This document shows, piece by piece, positions 2,109 to 58,784 of a stretch of 64,000 bases of DNA. The notes beneath the pieces are model-generated. The model searched no databases. It worked only from the letters and a program-made list of their open reading frames with translations, and was not told where the DNA came from. The stretch's first letter is position 1, and the number at the start of each line of letters is the position of its first letter. This stretch comes from Salinispirillum sp. LH 10-3-1. GTDB taxonomy: Bacteria; Pseudomonadota; Gammaproteobacteria; Pseudomonadales; Natronospirillaceae. The translations under genes and the position numbers were made by a program. The stretch lies in NCBI RefSeq assembly GCF_030643825.1, contig NZ_CP101717.1, forward strand, positions 2,108,001 to 2,172,000. The letters are read 5' to 3'.

Positions 2109-3218
2109 TTAGCTTTGCAATATCGTTAGCATACGACGCAATGGCTCCGCCGCACCCCACAACAATTGATCACCGACCGTAAACGCAGAAATATATTCTG
2201 GCCCCATATTCAACTTGCGAATACGGCCAATCGGTACCGTTAAAGTACCGTTCACTTTCGCGGGCGACAAATCGGCGATGCTCAGCTCACGATCATTAGG
2301 CACCACTTTCACCCAATCATTGTGTGTCGCCAAAATCTGTTCGATTTCACCCACCGACAGGTCTTTCTTGAGTTTGATGGTCAACGCTTGGCTATGACAA
2401 CGCATGGCACCGATCCGCACGCAAATACCATCAATAGGTACCTGGCGATCTGAACGACCCAAAATTTTGTTGGTTTCAACCTGTGCTTTCCATTCTTCTT
2501 TGCTCTGTCCGCTTTCCATGGCCTTGTCGATCCATGGAATCAGACTACCCGCCAACGGAGCACCAAAGTTTTGTGTCGGAAACTCGTCTGAACGCATGGT
2601 TTCAGCCACTTGACGATCCACTTCCAGAATAGCCGAAGCCGGGTCATTAACCTGCTCCGCAACAGATTCGTTGATAGCACCCATCTGCTTGATCAACTCT
2701 TTCATGTTTTGCGCACCCGCGCCGGAAGCCGCCTGATACGTCATCGGGCTCACCCACTCGATCAAGTCTTTTTCAAACAAGCCACCCAGAGCAATCAGCA
2801 TCAAGGATACCGTGCAATTACCGCCAACAAAGGTCTTGGTGCCATCGGCCAATGCCTGATCAATAACGCCACGGTTGACCGGATCGAGAATCAAAACTGC
2901 ATCATCTTTCATGCGCAATGTCGACGCAGCGTCTATCCAGTATCCGCTCCAACCTGCATCACGCAGCGGCTGATACACCTCGGTTGTGTAGTCACCACCC
3001 TGACAGGTAATGATGACGTCCATGGCCTGCAGTGCGCTGATATCACGCGCATCTTGCAACAAAGGAATCTCTTTGCCCACATCAGGGCCAGCGATACCAA
3101 CCTGTGACGTACTGAAAAACACAGGGGCGATATTCGCAAAGTCGTTTTCGGCACGCATGCGGTCCATTAATACGGAACCGACCATTCCGCGCCATCCTAC
3201 AAATCCTACTTTTAACAT
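2109..3218 (-). CDS. asd: Aspartate-semialdehyde dehydrogenase
   Basis: Catalyses NADPH-dependent reduction of aspartyl phosphate to aspartate semialdehyde, the branch point for lysine, methionine, threonine and diaminopimelate. The N-terminus ([17 protein letters not shown]) matches the Rossmann motif of the proteobacterial enzyme. The catalytic cysteine is in GGNCTV and a conserved active-site stretch is [14 protein letters not shown]. 369 residues, close to the 367 of E. coli. I chose ATG at 3218, since GAGGA lies just upstream and family proteins begin there; a GTG four codons earlier is less likely. It starts 8 bases after leuB stops, so the two are almost certainly co-transcribed. Confidence 0.96.
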
Positions 3219-3226
3219 GATATTCC

Positions 3227-4306
3227 TCACTCGTTGAGTGCTTTAAGGACTGCTTGTCCCATTTCTGCCGTAGTGACCTTACGTGCTCCTTCGCTCATGA
3301 TGTCGGCGGTACGCAAGCCAGCATCCAACACGCGGCTCACTGCCGCTTCAATAGCGTCCGCCGCAGCGGCTGCCTGCAAGGAGTAACGTAACATCATGGC
3401 GACCGACAAAATGGTCGCCAGTGGGTTTGCAATGCCCTGTCCGGCGATATCAGGAGCACTGCCGTGTATGGGCTCGTACATGCCTTGCTGCTGATCGTTT
3501 AACGAGGCAGATGGTAGCATGCCGATGGAGCCGGTGAGCATGGCGGCGCAGTCAGACAATATGTCGCCGAACATGTTGCCGGTGACCATAACGTCAAACT
3601 GCTTCGGCGCCCGCACAAGCTGCATTGCGGCGTTGTCGACGTACATGTGGCTGAGTTCCACTTCGGGGTATTCAGCACTGATGCGGGTCATGACTTCGCG
3701 CCACAGCACGGTCACTTCCAGTACATTGGCCTTGTCTACGGAGCAAACGCGTTTGTCGCGTTTCATGGCCGCTTGGAAGGCGACGTGAGCGATGCGCTCT
3801 ATCTCTGGTTCGCTGTATATGTAGGTATTATACCCTTCTCGCACGCCTTTTTCATTGGTACGAATACCGCGGGGCTCGCCAAAGTAAATGCCACCGGTCA
3901 GTTCGCGCACAATAAGGATATCCAGACCGGATACGATTTCGGGACGCAAGCTGGACGCTGCGGCCAATTGCGGATACAGAATAGCCGGACGCAAGTTGGC
4001 GAATAGGTTCAAGTTAGAACGCAAGCCCAGCAAGCCTTTTTCGGGCCGCAGCGCCATTTCCAGCTTGTCCCATTTTGGGCCACCGACAGCACCCAACAGG
4101 ATAGCGTCGGAGTTTTTCGCTGCATTCAGCGTTGACTCAGGCAGTGGGCCGCCCGTTGCGTCAATGGCGGCGCCGCCGACCAGACCTTCATTCAATTCAA
4201 TACCCAGCTGATACCGTTCGTTCGCCCACTCCAGCACTTTTACCGCTTCGGTGACAATTTCCGGCCCGATTCCATCACCCGGCAATACCAATACGTTTCT
4301 GCTCAC
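3227..4306 (-). CDS. leuB: 3-isopropylmalate dehydrogenase
   Basis: Oxidatively decarboxylates 3-isopropylmalate to 2-oxoisocaproate, the last step specific to leucine synthesis. The N-terminus ([14 protein letters not shown]) and the metal/NAD signature around [10 protein letters not shown] and the following Gly/Leu-rich stretch are typical; 359 residues against 363 in E. coli. The start is GTG at 4306, preceded by AGGAG; the longer open frame to 4435 only reads through repeat element A. Although it belongs to the leu unit, 363 bases separate it from leuD, filled by two large folded repeats, so transcription or mRNA stability may differ from leuCD. Confidence 0.96.
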
Positions 4307-52909: not shown

Positions 52910-53206
52910 ATGATTGATCGCGATTACATGGAAAAACGTTCCTTCATGCGCATGAATATGGATGCTCCTGCGGTAATTCAGATGGAAGACGGGACACAGA
53001 AGCATTGCATCTGCAAAGACTTAAGCGCCGTAGGCATGCTGATCGAAGTCGATCAATCGGTGGCTGTAGGTACCCAATTTCAAGTGCACTTACCGGCACT
53101 TACTGGTCAATTTGCACCATTAGATGCAGCGGTGAAAGTTCACCGAGTAGATGAAATGGGCGGTGGTAAATACCAGCTGGGTCTAGAAATAGAACAAATT
53201 AAATAA
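52910..53206 (+). CDS. PilZ-domain c-di-GMP-binding protein
   Basis: 98 residues, a single PilZ domain. The c-di-GMP motif RxxxR is in KRSFMRMNM and DxSxxG in CKDLSAVGMLI. PilZ proteins bind c-di-GMP and adjust motility or surface behaviour. It is the only plus-strand gene in the chemotaxis end of the window, and its own promoter is near consensus. The downstream gene is convergent and 8 bases away. Confidence 0.9.
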   Translation: MIDRDYMEKRSFMRMNMDAPAVIQMEDGTQKHCICKDLSAVGMLIEVDQSVAVGTQFQVHLPALTGQFAPLDAAVKVHRVDEMGGGKYQLGLEIEQIK

Positions 53207-54465: not shown

Positions 54466-55371
<906 letters not shown>

Positions 55372-55383
55372 GATACACCAGTG

Positions 55384-56160
55384 TCACGATGCAATCTCCT
55401 GTTGCAACGTGCGTAGCAAACTCCCGTAGGATTCACAACCGCGAGAATTAGGGTCTAGCTGACAGATCGACAAACCCTCTCTCGATGCATCACGCAGTCG
55501 CGTATCGATCGGTATCGCTGACTTCCACAATTTATCGTCATAGGTCTGGCGCAGCGTCCGCAAACTGCGCTGCCCTGCCTGTGTACGACGGTCAAACATG
55601 GTAGGGACAATCAGATACTTCAGTTGTTTTTTGCGCGAAGCGGTTACCATTTGCAGCGTATGAATCATACGCTCCAAGCCTTTCAAGGCCATAAACTCGG
55701 TCTGTACTGGCAGAATGAGCACCTGCGCAGCGGCAATCGCATTGATCAACAGCACACCCAACAGCGGTGGCGTATCAATCAACACATAGTCAAAATCATC
55801 CCACAACTGAGTCAATGCGCGCGACAACACCAAACCCATACCGCCCTGCTGGGAAATATTACGCTCCAGTGTAGCTAATGCGGTATTGGCGGGTAATAAG
55901 CACACGTTGGGCATATTTGTATCGACGACCAACTGCGCGGTCATGTGATCAGGCACGCGGCCTTGATGCATGAACAAATCATACACACTGTGTTCGATAG
56001 TATCTGGATTGAGGCGGAAATAACTGGTCAGGCTGCCTTGTGGATCCATATCCACCATCAACACGCGCTTACCCTGCTCTCCGAGTAAAGCGCTTAAACT
56101 GACGACCGATGTTGTCTTACCAACACCGCCTTTCTGATTTGCAACGGCCCAAACGTGCAC
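55384..56160 (-). CDS. parC: ParC-type ParA-family ATPase of the chemotaxis cluster
   Basis: 258 residues. Deviant Walker A in VANQKGGVGKTTSVVSLSALLGEQG, switch region DMDPQGSLTSYF and DYVLIDTPPLLGVLL. In Vibrio and Pseudomonas this ATPase places chemotaxis arrays at the pole and acts with ParP. I chose GTG at 56160 (MHVWAVANQ) because GGGAG lies 8 bases upstream and relatives start at the same residue. 111 bases separate it from motD. Confidence 0.88.
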   Translation of the reverse strand: MHVWAVANQKGGVGKTTSVVSLSALLGEQGKRVLMVDMDPQGSLTSYFRLNPDTIEHSVYDLFMHQGRVPDHMTAQLVVDTNMPNVCLLPANTALATLERNISQQGGMGLVLSRALTQLWDDFDYVLIDTPPLLGVLLINAIAAAQVLILPVQTEFMALKGLERMIHTLQMVTASRKKQLKYLIVPTMFDRRTQAGQRSLRTLRQTYDDKLWKSAIPIDTRLRDASREGLSICQLDPNSRGCESYGSLLRTLQQEIAS

Positions 56161-56271
56161 GTTTGTCACTCCCGTAATTTTTTATTGTATCTGCCAACTG
56201 CGTTCCAACTTTAGATATTTCACTTAACGAGTTCAATCTGACCGGGTCTCAACTCGGTTCCACCCACTCGT

Positions 56272-57024
56272 TTAATCACTCCAAGGCCTACTGATTAAAA
56301 TTTCGATGCGTCGATTGGCAGCTCGGTGCTCTGCTGTATCATTCGGTCGCAACGGCTGAAAACCGCCATAGCCTTGCGCCACAATGCGCTGCGGCGCAAT
56401 TCCATCTCGCTGCATAAAACGCGCAACAGAGGCCGCTCGTCGACTGGATAGCTGCCAGCTGGCTTCTGCTGAGGCTATTTGGTCATCCGTATGCGCGCCA
56501 ACATTGATCACCACAACCTCATCGCGCAAAGCCCTTGCAATAACGTATAGCACATCTTCCCCTTGAGCACGTAGGTTGATGTCCCCTGGCTGAAACAAAC
56601 TGTCGCTGGCCAATAGCACCATTACCCACTCAGGCGAACTAATGACTGAGGGCGTATCAGCGCCTCGGTGGTTTGCGAAGGCATGTACCATAGTGTCTGC
56701 AATGCCTTGCAGTAGAGTATCTGACTCAGTGTCCACCAAGGCCTCAGAAGCAACGTTCAGTTCAATGTCAGGGCTCGACGGTGCGCGCAATCCAGACACT
56801 ACCGACTCTGGTTCATGGAGGGACTGGTCTGGTGGCTCGATGGTACCCAGTACCGCTTGGACAGTGTCCGACAATGCGCCGATGCGCGCTGAGTCCAACT
56901 CTGCATTAACCATCAAAAAAGCAAATAGCGCCACCAGTATCGTTGTGAAATTAGCGTATGATGACAGCCATCGGGAAGAATGTGGTGCTGACTGTGGCGA
57001 AAAACTTCGAGCAGAGCGTCGCAT
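56272..57024 (-). CDS. motD: Stator protein MotD (MotB family) with Asp-to-Asn channel residue
   Basis: 250 residues. One N-terminal transmembrane helix, then a linker and an OmpA-type peptidoglycan-binding domain with HTDDQ, SSRRAASVARF and NRRIEILI. The motif normally read YADF, which holds the ion-carrying aspartate, reads SSYANFTTI here (Asn codon AAT at the expected position). The rest of the fold is intact. It is paired with MotC. ATG at 57024 follows AGGT; a TTG one codon earlier is possible. A second stator pair is expected elsewhere in the genome. Confidence 0.85.
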   Translation of the reverse strand: MRRSARSFSPQSAPHSSRWLSSYANFTTILVALFAFLMVNAELDSARIGALSDTVQAVLGTIEPPDQSLHEPESVVSGLRAPSSPDIELNVASEALVDTESDTLLQGIADTMVHAFANHRGADTPSVISSPEWVMVLLASDSLFQPGDINLRAQGEDVLYVIARALRDEVVVINVGAHTDDQIASAEASWQLSSRRAASVARFMQRDGIAPQRIVAQGYGGFQPLRPNDTAEHRAANRRIEILISRPWSD

Positions 57025-57028
57025 CAAA

Positions 57029-57757
57029 TCACCTGAAGTGCCGGAGTCGTTGAGCCATGTGTCGGGGATTTTCGCCTTGTTGAATCGCCATTAGACCCGT
57101 CAGCGTCATTTCCCTATGTCGATACAAGCGCTGTGCCTGCCAGCGCAAACGTGAGGCTACCGGCAGAAATAACAGATTGGCCAACGCCAGTCCGTACAGT
57201 ATCGCTACGAAGGCGGTTGCAATACCGACTCCCAAATTGGTGGTATCAGACACCTCCACCATTACTTGGATCAAACCAAGCACGGCTCCTAGAATTCCCA
57301 TAGTAGGCGCATAACTGGCCAATTGCTCAAAGAACTCAGCCCCCTCTAAGTACTGTTCCTCTTCTGCAACCATCGCCACGGTTAAGTGTTGCTGCACGCC
57401 TTCACCCTTGACGCCATCAACCAGCAACAACATACCTTCTTGCAAAAAAGCGTCCGGTTGCAAGCTGGCCTCTTTTTCCAACGCCAACACGCCGTCTTTA
57501 CGCGCAAGTTGGCCCCAGCGCGTCAAAGCATCAATCGTTTCACTAAAAGAAGGCTTACTCGGCGATAGCAATCGTTGCAGCACAAAGCGCAGATTTATCA
57601 AGCGGGCCCGATCACTTTGGGCGACACCGACCCCCAGAGTCGCACCAAACACAATCATCAAAGCCGGGAGATTAAAGAGTGCCAATGGACTTCCGCCTTC
57701 CAGCACAAAACCGAAGAGAATAAGTCCACAGGCAATTAGAGTTCCGAGCGCTAACAT
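57029..57757 (-). CDS. motC: Stator protein MotC (MotA family)
   Basis: 242 residues with four transmembrane helices. The conserved proline of helix 3 (SYAPTMGILGAVLGLIQVM) and of helix 4 (ALANLLFLPVASRLR) are both present. The cytoplasmic loop between helices 2 and 3 is about 110 residues (LQRLLSPSKPSFSETIDALTRW and on). Its stop is 4 bases before the motD start. Unlike MotD it shows no abnormal key residue. Confidence 0.9.
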   Translation of the reverse strand: MLALGTLIACGLILFGFVLEGGSPLALFNLPALMIVFGATLGVGVAQSDRARLINLRFVLQRLLSPSKPSFSETIDALTRWGQLARKDGVLALEKEASLQPDAFLQEGMLLLVDGVKGEGVQQHLTVAMVAEEEQYLEGAEFFEQLASYAPTMGILGAVLGLIQVMVEVSDTTNLGVGIATAFVAILYGLALANLLFLPVASRLRWQAQRLYRHREMTLTGLMAIQQGENPRHMAQRLRHFR

Positions 57758-57770
57758 CCGCGTCGCTCGC

Positions 57771-58784
57771 TTACATTACACTGACGAGCGTTTTTGCAAT
57801 ATCGTCTAGCGGAATATCGGCATCCGACAGCCCAGCACTGCGAATCGAACCGGGCATGCCATCAATGACGCAGCTGGCAGCGTCCTGAGTCCATACATGA
57901 GAACCTGCTTGTTTAAGTAAACGAGCACCATCACGACCGTCAGCCCCCATGCCAGTCAAGACAATGGCCAACGCACGGTCACGATAATATTTCACCGCAC
58001 TGCCGAAGGTTAAGTCCACCGAGGGTTTGTAGTTCAGACGTTCGTCACCATCCATAATTCGCACTGAGTTGCGTGAGCCCAACATCATTTGTTTGCCGCC
58101 TGGCGCAAGCAACGCGAGTCCGGGTTCCAAGACACTACCGTCTTTGGCTTCAGCCACTCGAATCTGACACTGTCGATCGAGACGCTCCGCAAAAGGTCCA
58201 GTAAAAGCCTCTGGCATGTGTTGAATCAGTAATATCGGCACACGGATTGTGGCCGGAATTTGTGTCAGCACCTTCTGCAAGGCAACGGGGCCACCAGTAC
58301 TGGTGCCAATCAGAATAATTTCCGGTTTGCGTGGTAGTGAAATTTTACCGGGCCGCCGCTCACTGGCGGCTGCAACGCGTGGCTTCTGCCGTTTTTTGGC
58401 AACGGCCAGAATTTTATCAATGAGCTGCTGCTTCAGCAGTTCATTCTGCGTCATGTTCTCGCGGAATTTTGGCAAATAGTCCAGTGCGCCGGCATCCAAC
58501 GCATCCAGCGTCACCCGTGCACCCGAGGTAGTCAATGAGGAAAACATCAGTATAGCGGTCGGTGCCTTCGCCATAATCTCGCGCACCGCCGAAATGCCAT
58601 CCATTACGGGCATTTCATAGTCCATCGTTATGACATCAGGCTTAAGCTGAATCGCTTTTTCTACTGCTTCGCGCCCATGGCTTGCAGTCCCTACTACCGT
58701 CAGCTCCGAGCTGTTCCGCAAAATAGAAATAATCTGCTGGCGAAAAAACGAGGAGTCGTCGACCACCAGAACACTGATTGTCAT
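57771..58784 (-). CDS. cheB: Chemotaxis methylesterase CheB
   Basis: Removes methyl groups from receptors and deamidates them. N-terminal receiver domain with Asp55 in VITMDYEMPVMDG, then the esterase domain with the catalytic serine in IGTSTGGPVAL, the histidine in IQHMPEAFTGPFAERL, and LTGMGADGRDGA. 337 residues. No CheR methyltransferase gene is in the window. Confidence 0.95.
   Translation of the reverse strand: MTISVLVVDDSSFFRQQIISILRNSSELTVVGTASHGREAVEKAIQLKPDVITMDYEMPVMDGISAVREIMAKAPTAILMFSSLTTSGARVTLDALDAGALDYLPKFRENMTQNELLKQQLIDKILAVAKKRQKPRVAAASERRPGKISLPRKPEIILIGTSTGGPVALQKVLTQIPATIRVPILLIQHMPEAFTGPFAERLDRQCQIRVAEAKDGSVLEPGLALLAPGGKQMMLGSRNSVRIMDGDERLNYKPSVDLTFGSAVKYYRDRALAIVLTGMGADGRDGARLLKQAGSHVWTQDAASCVIDGMPGSIRSAGLSDADIPLDDIAKTLVSVM

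What the first reader, a model, noticed from the sequence alone, without database searches (positions are those of the whole stretch)
56930..56985. MotD with asparagine in place of the ion-channel aspartate
Stator B subunits carry an essential Asp in the channel helix (YADF in MotB and MotD). Here the codon is AAT and the motif reads YANF, while the peptidoglycan-binding domain and the partner MotC keep their key residues. In E. coli an Asn at this site abolishes torque. The pair may be a non-conducting stator, a regulator that competes for stator sites, or be decaying. An acidic pair at the far end of the helix (AELDS) is unlikely to substitute.
Basis: partly seen in the sequence, partly recalled or inferred. 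Interest (0 to 1): 0.7.

Follow-up and report, generated by a model that had tools for sequence, protein, structure and literature searches.

The report
Flagellar stator pair without ion-binding residues
This bacterium keeps a full-length pair of flagellar motor proteins (MotC and MotD) in which both residues that bind the driving ion have been replaced, so the pair probably makes no torque and a second, intact stator drives the flagellum; it is one case in a family of bacteria where this stator is being disabled or deleted again and again.

Summary
MotD (minus strand, 56272-57027) reads SYANF; the Asp codon is AAT at 56950-56952. In 391 genomes of the order only this one has Asn in the motif, whereas 64 of 146 genomes have Asp. 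It is Thr in 109 of 110 MotC motifs from the order; the exception is this gene. T186I in Vibrio PomA was isolated as non-functional. No other membrane acid replaces the Asp. Rotor-facing R/E, both prolines and the peptidoglycan motif are kept. The genome has an intact PomAB pair with all Na+-site residues and a full fli/flh/che cluster. So MotCD is almost certainly non-conducting. In the family the cheB-parA slot is eroding repeatedly: both genes deleted in four genomes (including the sister genus), orphan channel-dead MotC in three, another MotC Thr loss plus a degraded MotD in one. PomAB is kept in 20 of 22. MotC here evolves at normal rate, MotD about twice as fast, with no stops. Most likely a recently de-energised stator on its way out; a selected non-conducting regulator is the main rival.

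The parts
56272..57027 (-). motD, 251 codons from TTG (250 from ATG at 57024); MotB_plug TM helix and OmpA-like peptidoglycan-binding domain, intact ORF
   Evidence: hhalign to 15 relatives' MotDs P=99.9
56950..56952 (-). codon AAT = Asn in place of the channel Asp (SYANF)
   Evidence: invariant Asp in 15 aligned relatives; Asn only here in 391 order genomes
57029..57757 (-). motC, 242 codons; MotA_ExbB + MotA_N domains; keeps R86, E94, P151, P199 (E. coli R90, E98, P173, P222 equivalents)
57200..57202 (-). codon ATA = Ile186 in place of the TM4 ion-site Thr (AFVAILYG instead of AFVATIYG)
   Evidence: 109 Thr: 1 Ile over 110 MotC motifs from 294 order genomes
56425..56495 (-). retained peptidoglycan-binding motif of MotD (HTD ... 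WQLSSRRA), approximate limits
   Evidence: aligned with PomB of solved structures
57771..58784 (-). cheB, upstream neighbour; one side of the slot that is empty in sister genomes
55384..56169 (-). parA-like gene, downstream neighbour; other side of the slot

Best explanation
The motC-motD pair encodes a stator that can still fold, pair, reach the rotor and bind peptidoglycan, but has lost the ion-binding site (MotD Asp to Asn, MotC TM4 Thr to Ile), so it neither conducts ions nor generates torque. The flagellum is driven by the separate PomAB pair. The pair is a comparatively recent casualty in a family in which PomAB has made MotCD dispensable and MotCD is repeatedly disabled or deleted. Shown: both substitutions, their rarity, intact ORFs, intact PomAB, repeated erosion in relatives. 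Inferred: loss of conduction (from mutants of homologues), retained folding and assembly, recency, and PomAB as sole motor.
For: Asn only here among 391 order genomes; Asp in 64 of 146. MotC Thr186 in 109 of 110 motifs, Ile here. No acid elsewhere in MotD TM or MotC TM3/4. Homologue mutants: PomB-D24N and PomA-T186A lose Na+ binding, PomA-T186I non-functional (PMC6677748); P. aeruginosa MotD-D23A behaves like a motD deletion but is made and sits in the membrane (PMC12288467); B. burgdorferi MotB-D24N is non-motile yet partly assembled (PMC6663468). Own PomAB keeps Asp27, T158, T185, T186 and is conserved in 20 of 22 family genomes. fli/flh/che genes incl. fliG, fliM full length. Sister genus g7 has cheB and parA adjacent, motCD gone; also G005, G007; orphan MotC without the Thr in G001, G010, G021; G014 lost the Thr and has a degraded MotD ORF. 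MotD terminal branch 2.3x its neighbours' (most others 0.3-1.9) and 7 of 24 invariant positions broken.
Against: MotC evolves at an unexceptional rate (ratio 1.12) and its TM3-4 is otherwise conserved (25 of 29 invariants), unlike the clearly released MotCs of G001 and G010. MotD's excess change without a stop is not neutral: 1 aa change per site would bring about 14 nonsense hits. Both point to recent loss or to continued selection. No expression, motility or conductance data.
Confidence: 0.52

Rival explanations
1. A selected non-conducting stator: MotCD assembles at the rotor in competition with PomAB and acts as a brake, placeholder or load/surface sensor; channel residues were lost because ion flow is not needed.
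For: Both ORFs intact and adjacent, rotor-facing and peptidoglycan motifs kept; neutral simulation makes survival of the accelerated MotD ORF unlikely without selection. MotCs in G001, G010 and G014 keep cytoplasmic and C-terminal invariants (12/13, 10/13, 13/13) better than TM3-4 ones (8/29, 10/29, 19/29), as if the rotor-facing part were still used. Dominant-negative competition by MotB-D30A is proposed in P. aeruginosa (PMC12288467).
Against: Sister genus and two further relatives deleted the pair outright. In the window itself there is no bias towards the cytoplasmic part (12/13 vs 25/29, p=1). With 6 of 48 MotC and 7 of 24 MotD invariants changed, hitting both ion residues by chance has a probability of about 4%, not negligible. 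Ion-dead stators tend to leave the motor faster (as summarised in PMC12288467).
Confidence: 0.33
2. The pair still conducts by another route (a displaced carboxylate, or Asn deamidated to Asp).
For: ORFs intact; MotC evolves at normal rate.
Against: No new acid in MotD TM or MotC TM3/4; AELDS acids occur at the same plug positions in Asp-bearing relatives. The Thr is lost too. D-to-N at this site is dead in E. coli, Borrelia and Vibrio (PMC6663468, PMC6677748). Asn-Phe deamidates slowly (general knowledge).
Confidence: 0.06
3. Sequencing error or a mutation of this one strain.
For: No second genome of the genus is held.
Against: Two independent codons in two genes hit the same ion site; the whole MotD is divergent (27-35% identity to all relatives); closed, 99.96% complete genome.
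Confidence: 0.05

Closest known systems
MotC/MotD stator of Pseudomonas aeruginosa (NCBIfam PRK09109 / PRK09038)
   Same: Same locus order cheA-cheB-motC-motD-parA-cheW as relatives of the order, same domains, orthologous by synteny and profile
   Different: Channel Asp is Asn, TM4 Thr is Ile; scores below both equivalog cut-offs (MotD 136 vs 283 bits, MotC 230 vs 237)
Laboratory mutants PomB-D24N and PomA-T186I (Vibrio), MotB-D32N (E. coli), MotB-D24N (Borrelia), MotD-D23A (P. aeruginosa)
   Same: Same or equivalent substitutions, which abolish ion binding or torque; where examined, synthesis and membrane insertion survive (PMC6677748, PMC6663468, PMC12288467)
   Different: Here natural and present in a genome sequence, with both sites hit together
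PomAB Na+ stator (own genome, near C1:2594920-2596500)
   Same: Same fold and family
   Different: Keeps Asp27 and T158/T185/T186; strongly conserved in the family (59-73% for PomB)
Orphan MotC ORFs between cheB and parA in G001, G010, G021 (and a doubtful one in G008)
   Same: Same genomic slot, T186 lost
   Different: motD absent, TM3-4 strongly diverged

Membership tests
MotCD flagellar stator | A subunit with MotA_N and MotA_ExbB domains | tested here: met
   30.6 and 88.8 bits, both above cut-off; aligned over full length to solved MotA/PomA
MotCD flagellar stator | B subunit with one TM helix (MotB_plug) and OmpA-like domain | tested here: met
   26.0 (cut-off 24) and 61.5 bits
MotCD flagellar stator | Locus between cheB and parA/cheW in the chemotaxis operon | tested here: met
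MotCD flagellar stator | Ion-binding Asp in the B-subunit TM helix | tested here: not met
   Asn
MotCD flagellar stator | Conserved TM4 Thr of the A subunit (PomA T186 / E. coli MotA T209) | tested here: not met
   Ile; 109 of 110 motifs Thr
MotCD flagellar stator | Rotor-facing Arg/Glu and the two TM prolines of the A subunit | tested here: met
   R86, E94, P151, P199
MotCD flagellar stator | Peptidoglycan-binding motif of the B subunit (TD ... LS..R ... NRR) | tested here: met
   HTD, WQLSSRRA, ANRRIEI kept; binding itself not tested
MotCD flagellar stator | NCBIfam equivalog score cut-offs | tested here: not met
   PRK09038 136 of 283; PRK09109 230.2 of 237
MotCD flagellar stator | Ion-driven torque | not testable with these tools
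   needs motility assay
Non-motor relatives ExbBD / TolQR | A subunit scores as ExbB/TolQ rather than MotA | tested here: not met
   22.5 and 19.4 bits vs 230 for the MotC model
Pseudogene | Stops, frameshifts or loss of coding constraint | tested here: not met
   both ORFs open; MotC rate normal, MotD accelerated but without stops

The most novel reading that the evidence does not exclude
In this bacterial family the MotC protein, with or without MotD, has been turned repeatedly into a non-conducting rotor-binding regulator of a PomAB-driven motor: a stator that is not a motor, kept for its cytoplasmic face.
Probability: 0.27. Interest if true: 0.78.

Novelty: new variant of a known kind. Interest (0 to 1): 0.55.

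Why it matters
Channel-dead stators are known as laboratory mutants; the paper searches made here found no report of a natural one. Here is a natural double loss of the ion site in a pair with intact interfaces, beside a working second stator, in a family with several stages of the same process, including MotC without MotD. It gives a system to ask what a stator does besides driving rotation (competition for rotor sites, load and surface sensing) and how dual-stator bacteria go back to one stator.

Tried and rejected
Scan of 84,980-species contigs with the single MotD protein found only two distant matches. The G710 Asn hit in the class scan lies in an unrelated, phage-like ORF. dN/dS of orphan motC between G010 and G021 was uninformative: too few changes, dS 0.018. 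Region test for the window MotC gave no bias (p=1). The G008 MotC-like ORF is doubtful (hhalign 61%, no Pfam hit), as are details of the G014 MotD-like ORF (92%, no Pfam hit). Promoter/terminator scan found nothing above chance.

Full report
Observation. The ORF at 56272-57027 (minus) is MotD: MotB_plug and OmpA domains, 251 codons from TTG or 250 from the ATG at 57024, which follows an AGGTGA stretch at the end of motC. The codon at 56952-56950 is AAT and the motif reads RWLSSYANFTTIL. The window lies in a closed 3.47-Mb genome, 99.96% complete, the only genome of its genus held.

Is Asn unusual? MotD-like loci of the order read directly all have Asp. A degenerate DNA pattern for the motif with Asn matched 1 of 391 order genomes (this one) and, in a sample of 369 genomes of the class, this genome and one unrelated phage-like ORF. 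The same pattern with Asp matched 64 of 146 order genomes. Every other family MotD caught by the pattern with any codon at this site has Asp. The pattern only sees genes with intact flanks, so strongly eroded MotDs escape it (G014 is one).

A second lesion. Alignment of the window MotC with 15 relatives shows 48 invariant columns, 6 of them changed here; one is T186, now Ile. A pattern for GIA.AF.A-x-.YG in 294 order genomes gave 110 matches: 109 Thr and one Ile, this gene. The position equals T186 of Vibrio PomA and T209 of E. coli MotA (correspondence given in PMC6677748); in the alignments printed against solved MotA chains the window's Ile stands opposite Thr. PomA T158, T185 and T186 coordinate the ion near PomB D24 in the cryo-EM structure (PMC10374538). 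PomB-D24N, PomA-T158A and PomA-T186A lose the Na+-binding signal, and PomA-T186I was isolated as non-functional (PMC6677748). MotC-type proteins have Ala at 158 and 185, so T186 is the remaining hydroxyl of this site. No new acidic residue lies in the MotD helix or in MotC TM3/TM4; the acids of AELDS stand where relatives have SEVDK or SSVDS.

What is kept. MotC keeps R86 and E94 (spacing as R90 and E98 of E. coli MotA, which from general knowledge work on FliG), P151 and P199, and 25 of 29 TM3-4 invariants. MotD keeps the HTD, WQLSSRRA and ANRRIEI parts of the peptidoglycan-binding domain, though E177-G178 of the usual EG[HYF] are G-A.

The rest of the motor. The genome has one other MotB and MotA pair: PomA/PomB near C1:2594920-2596500, with WMATFSDLM (Asp27) and T158, T185, T186. 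This pair is found at 59-73% PomB identity in 20 of 22 family genomes including its own. Upstream of the window the genes flhF, flhA, flhB, fliR, fliP, fliO, fliN, fliM, fliL, fliK, fliJ, fliI, fliH, fliG and fliF are open, named here by sequence reading and order (fliF runs to the end of the fetched stretch); cheY, cheZ, cheA, cheB, fliA and flhG-like genes are in the window.

The family picture. In 20 relatives the interval between cheB and parA was read. Eleven have motC and motD with Asp and Thr. G006 and G012, the sister genus of this organism (100% support; ParA 78-80%), and G005 and G007 have cheB and parA side by side with both genes gone. G001, G010 and G021 have an open motC without motD and with Val or Leu at 186. 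G014 has motC with Leu at 186 and a strongly degraded MotD-like ORF in which Gly stands at the Asp site (hhalign 92%, tentative). G008 has a doubtful MotC-like ORF. On a tree of five concatenated proteins these cases fall in several separate places, so the losses are repeated, although some inner nodes have weak support. In four Asp-bearing MotDs of genus g2 (G013, G015, G017, G019) the peptidoglycan motif is gone instead.

Rates. On a fixed topology the terminal branch of MotC relative to ParA plus CheB is 1.12 for the window, 0.3-1.7 for most normal genes, 2.1 for G014, 4.2 for G001 and 5.2 for G010. For MotD it is 2.33 for the window; most others lie between 0.3 and 1.9 (one very short branch, G004, gives 4.0; the degraded G014 gives 21). 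So the window's MotC is still constrained while MotD changes faster. A neutral simulation gives about 7 nonsense hits per 0.5 amino-acid changes per site in motD, so the excess change is unlikely to have accumulated on an unselected gene. Either the ion site was lost late, after a period of relaxed but real selection, or the protein is kept for something else. If the ion residues were random members of the changed invariants (6 of 48 and 7 of 24), both would be hit with a chance of about 4%; this is suggestive, not compelling.

How it works, most likely. Non-conduction is close to certain given the homologous mutants (my estimate 0.9). Equivalent mutants are still made and inserted: MotD-D23A in P. 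aeruginosa behaves like a deletion but is abundant in the membrane, MotB-D30A looks dominant negative (PMC12288467), and Borrelia MotB-D24N occupies about 45% of stator sites (PMC6663468). So this pair may sit at the rotor as a passive unit. Whether that is a use or only a remainder is open; I favour a recent casualty (0.52) over a selected regulator (0.33), because close relatives removed the pair without visible replacement at the locus and because the window shows no region bias of its own. The channel-dead MotCs of relatives, which keep rotor-facing and C-terminal invariants better than channel ones (Fisher p = 0.0001 in G001, 0.02 in G010 and G014), are the best argument for the regulator. 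Limits of that test: few columns, chosen after seeing the data, and the species share history.

Comparison with the known. It is a MotCD pair by descent, locus and domains, but fails two defining features of a working stator and lies below both NCBIfam equivalog cut-offs. In the open-access literature searched I found the substitutions only as laboratory mutants; this is not proof that no natural case has been described. The family is probably Saccharospirillaceae-like (G003 has the size I remember for Gynuella, whose family one search gives); this rests on memory and was not tested.

Noticed in passing
L160 3469-4131, L161 3711-4373, L163 3266-3994 (G010, G021, G001): Open motC-like genes between cheB and parA with no motD; TM4 Thr lost, cytoplasmic part better conserved than TM3-4.
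   Followed up: partly
L091, L090, L092, L093 (G013, G015, G017, G019), C-terminal part of motD: MotDs of genus g2 keep the channel Asp but have lost the TD and NRR peptidoglycan-binding residues: the opposite of the window's change.
   Followed up: partly
L158, about 2400-3200 on the reverse strand (G014): Very diverged MotD-like ORF of about 223 aa, Gly at the Asp site, no Pfam match, directly behind a motC with Leu186.
   Followed up: partly
L164, about 3080-3960, reverse strand (G008): Open ORF in the motCD slot resembling only the MotC cytoplasmic segment (AKGALSLES...HLLVDQ); homology weak. No close PomB found in this genome.
   Followed up: partly
window 52910-53206 (+): Small PilZ-domain protein (98 aa) next to the chemotaxis cluster; PilZ proteins such as FlgZ/YcgR act on stators, a possible link.
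   Followed up: no
window 54466-55371 (-): CheW-domain protein with a long Glu-Pro repeat in its N-terminal half.
   Followed up: no
L154, L155 (G004 C1:171332-172078, G011 C26:95759-96508): Second copies of the parA-like chemotaxis gene (51-52% identity) at another place in two relatives, perhaps a second chemotaxis cluster.
   Followed up: no
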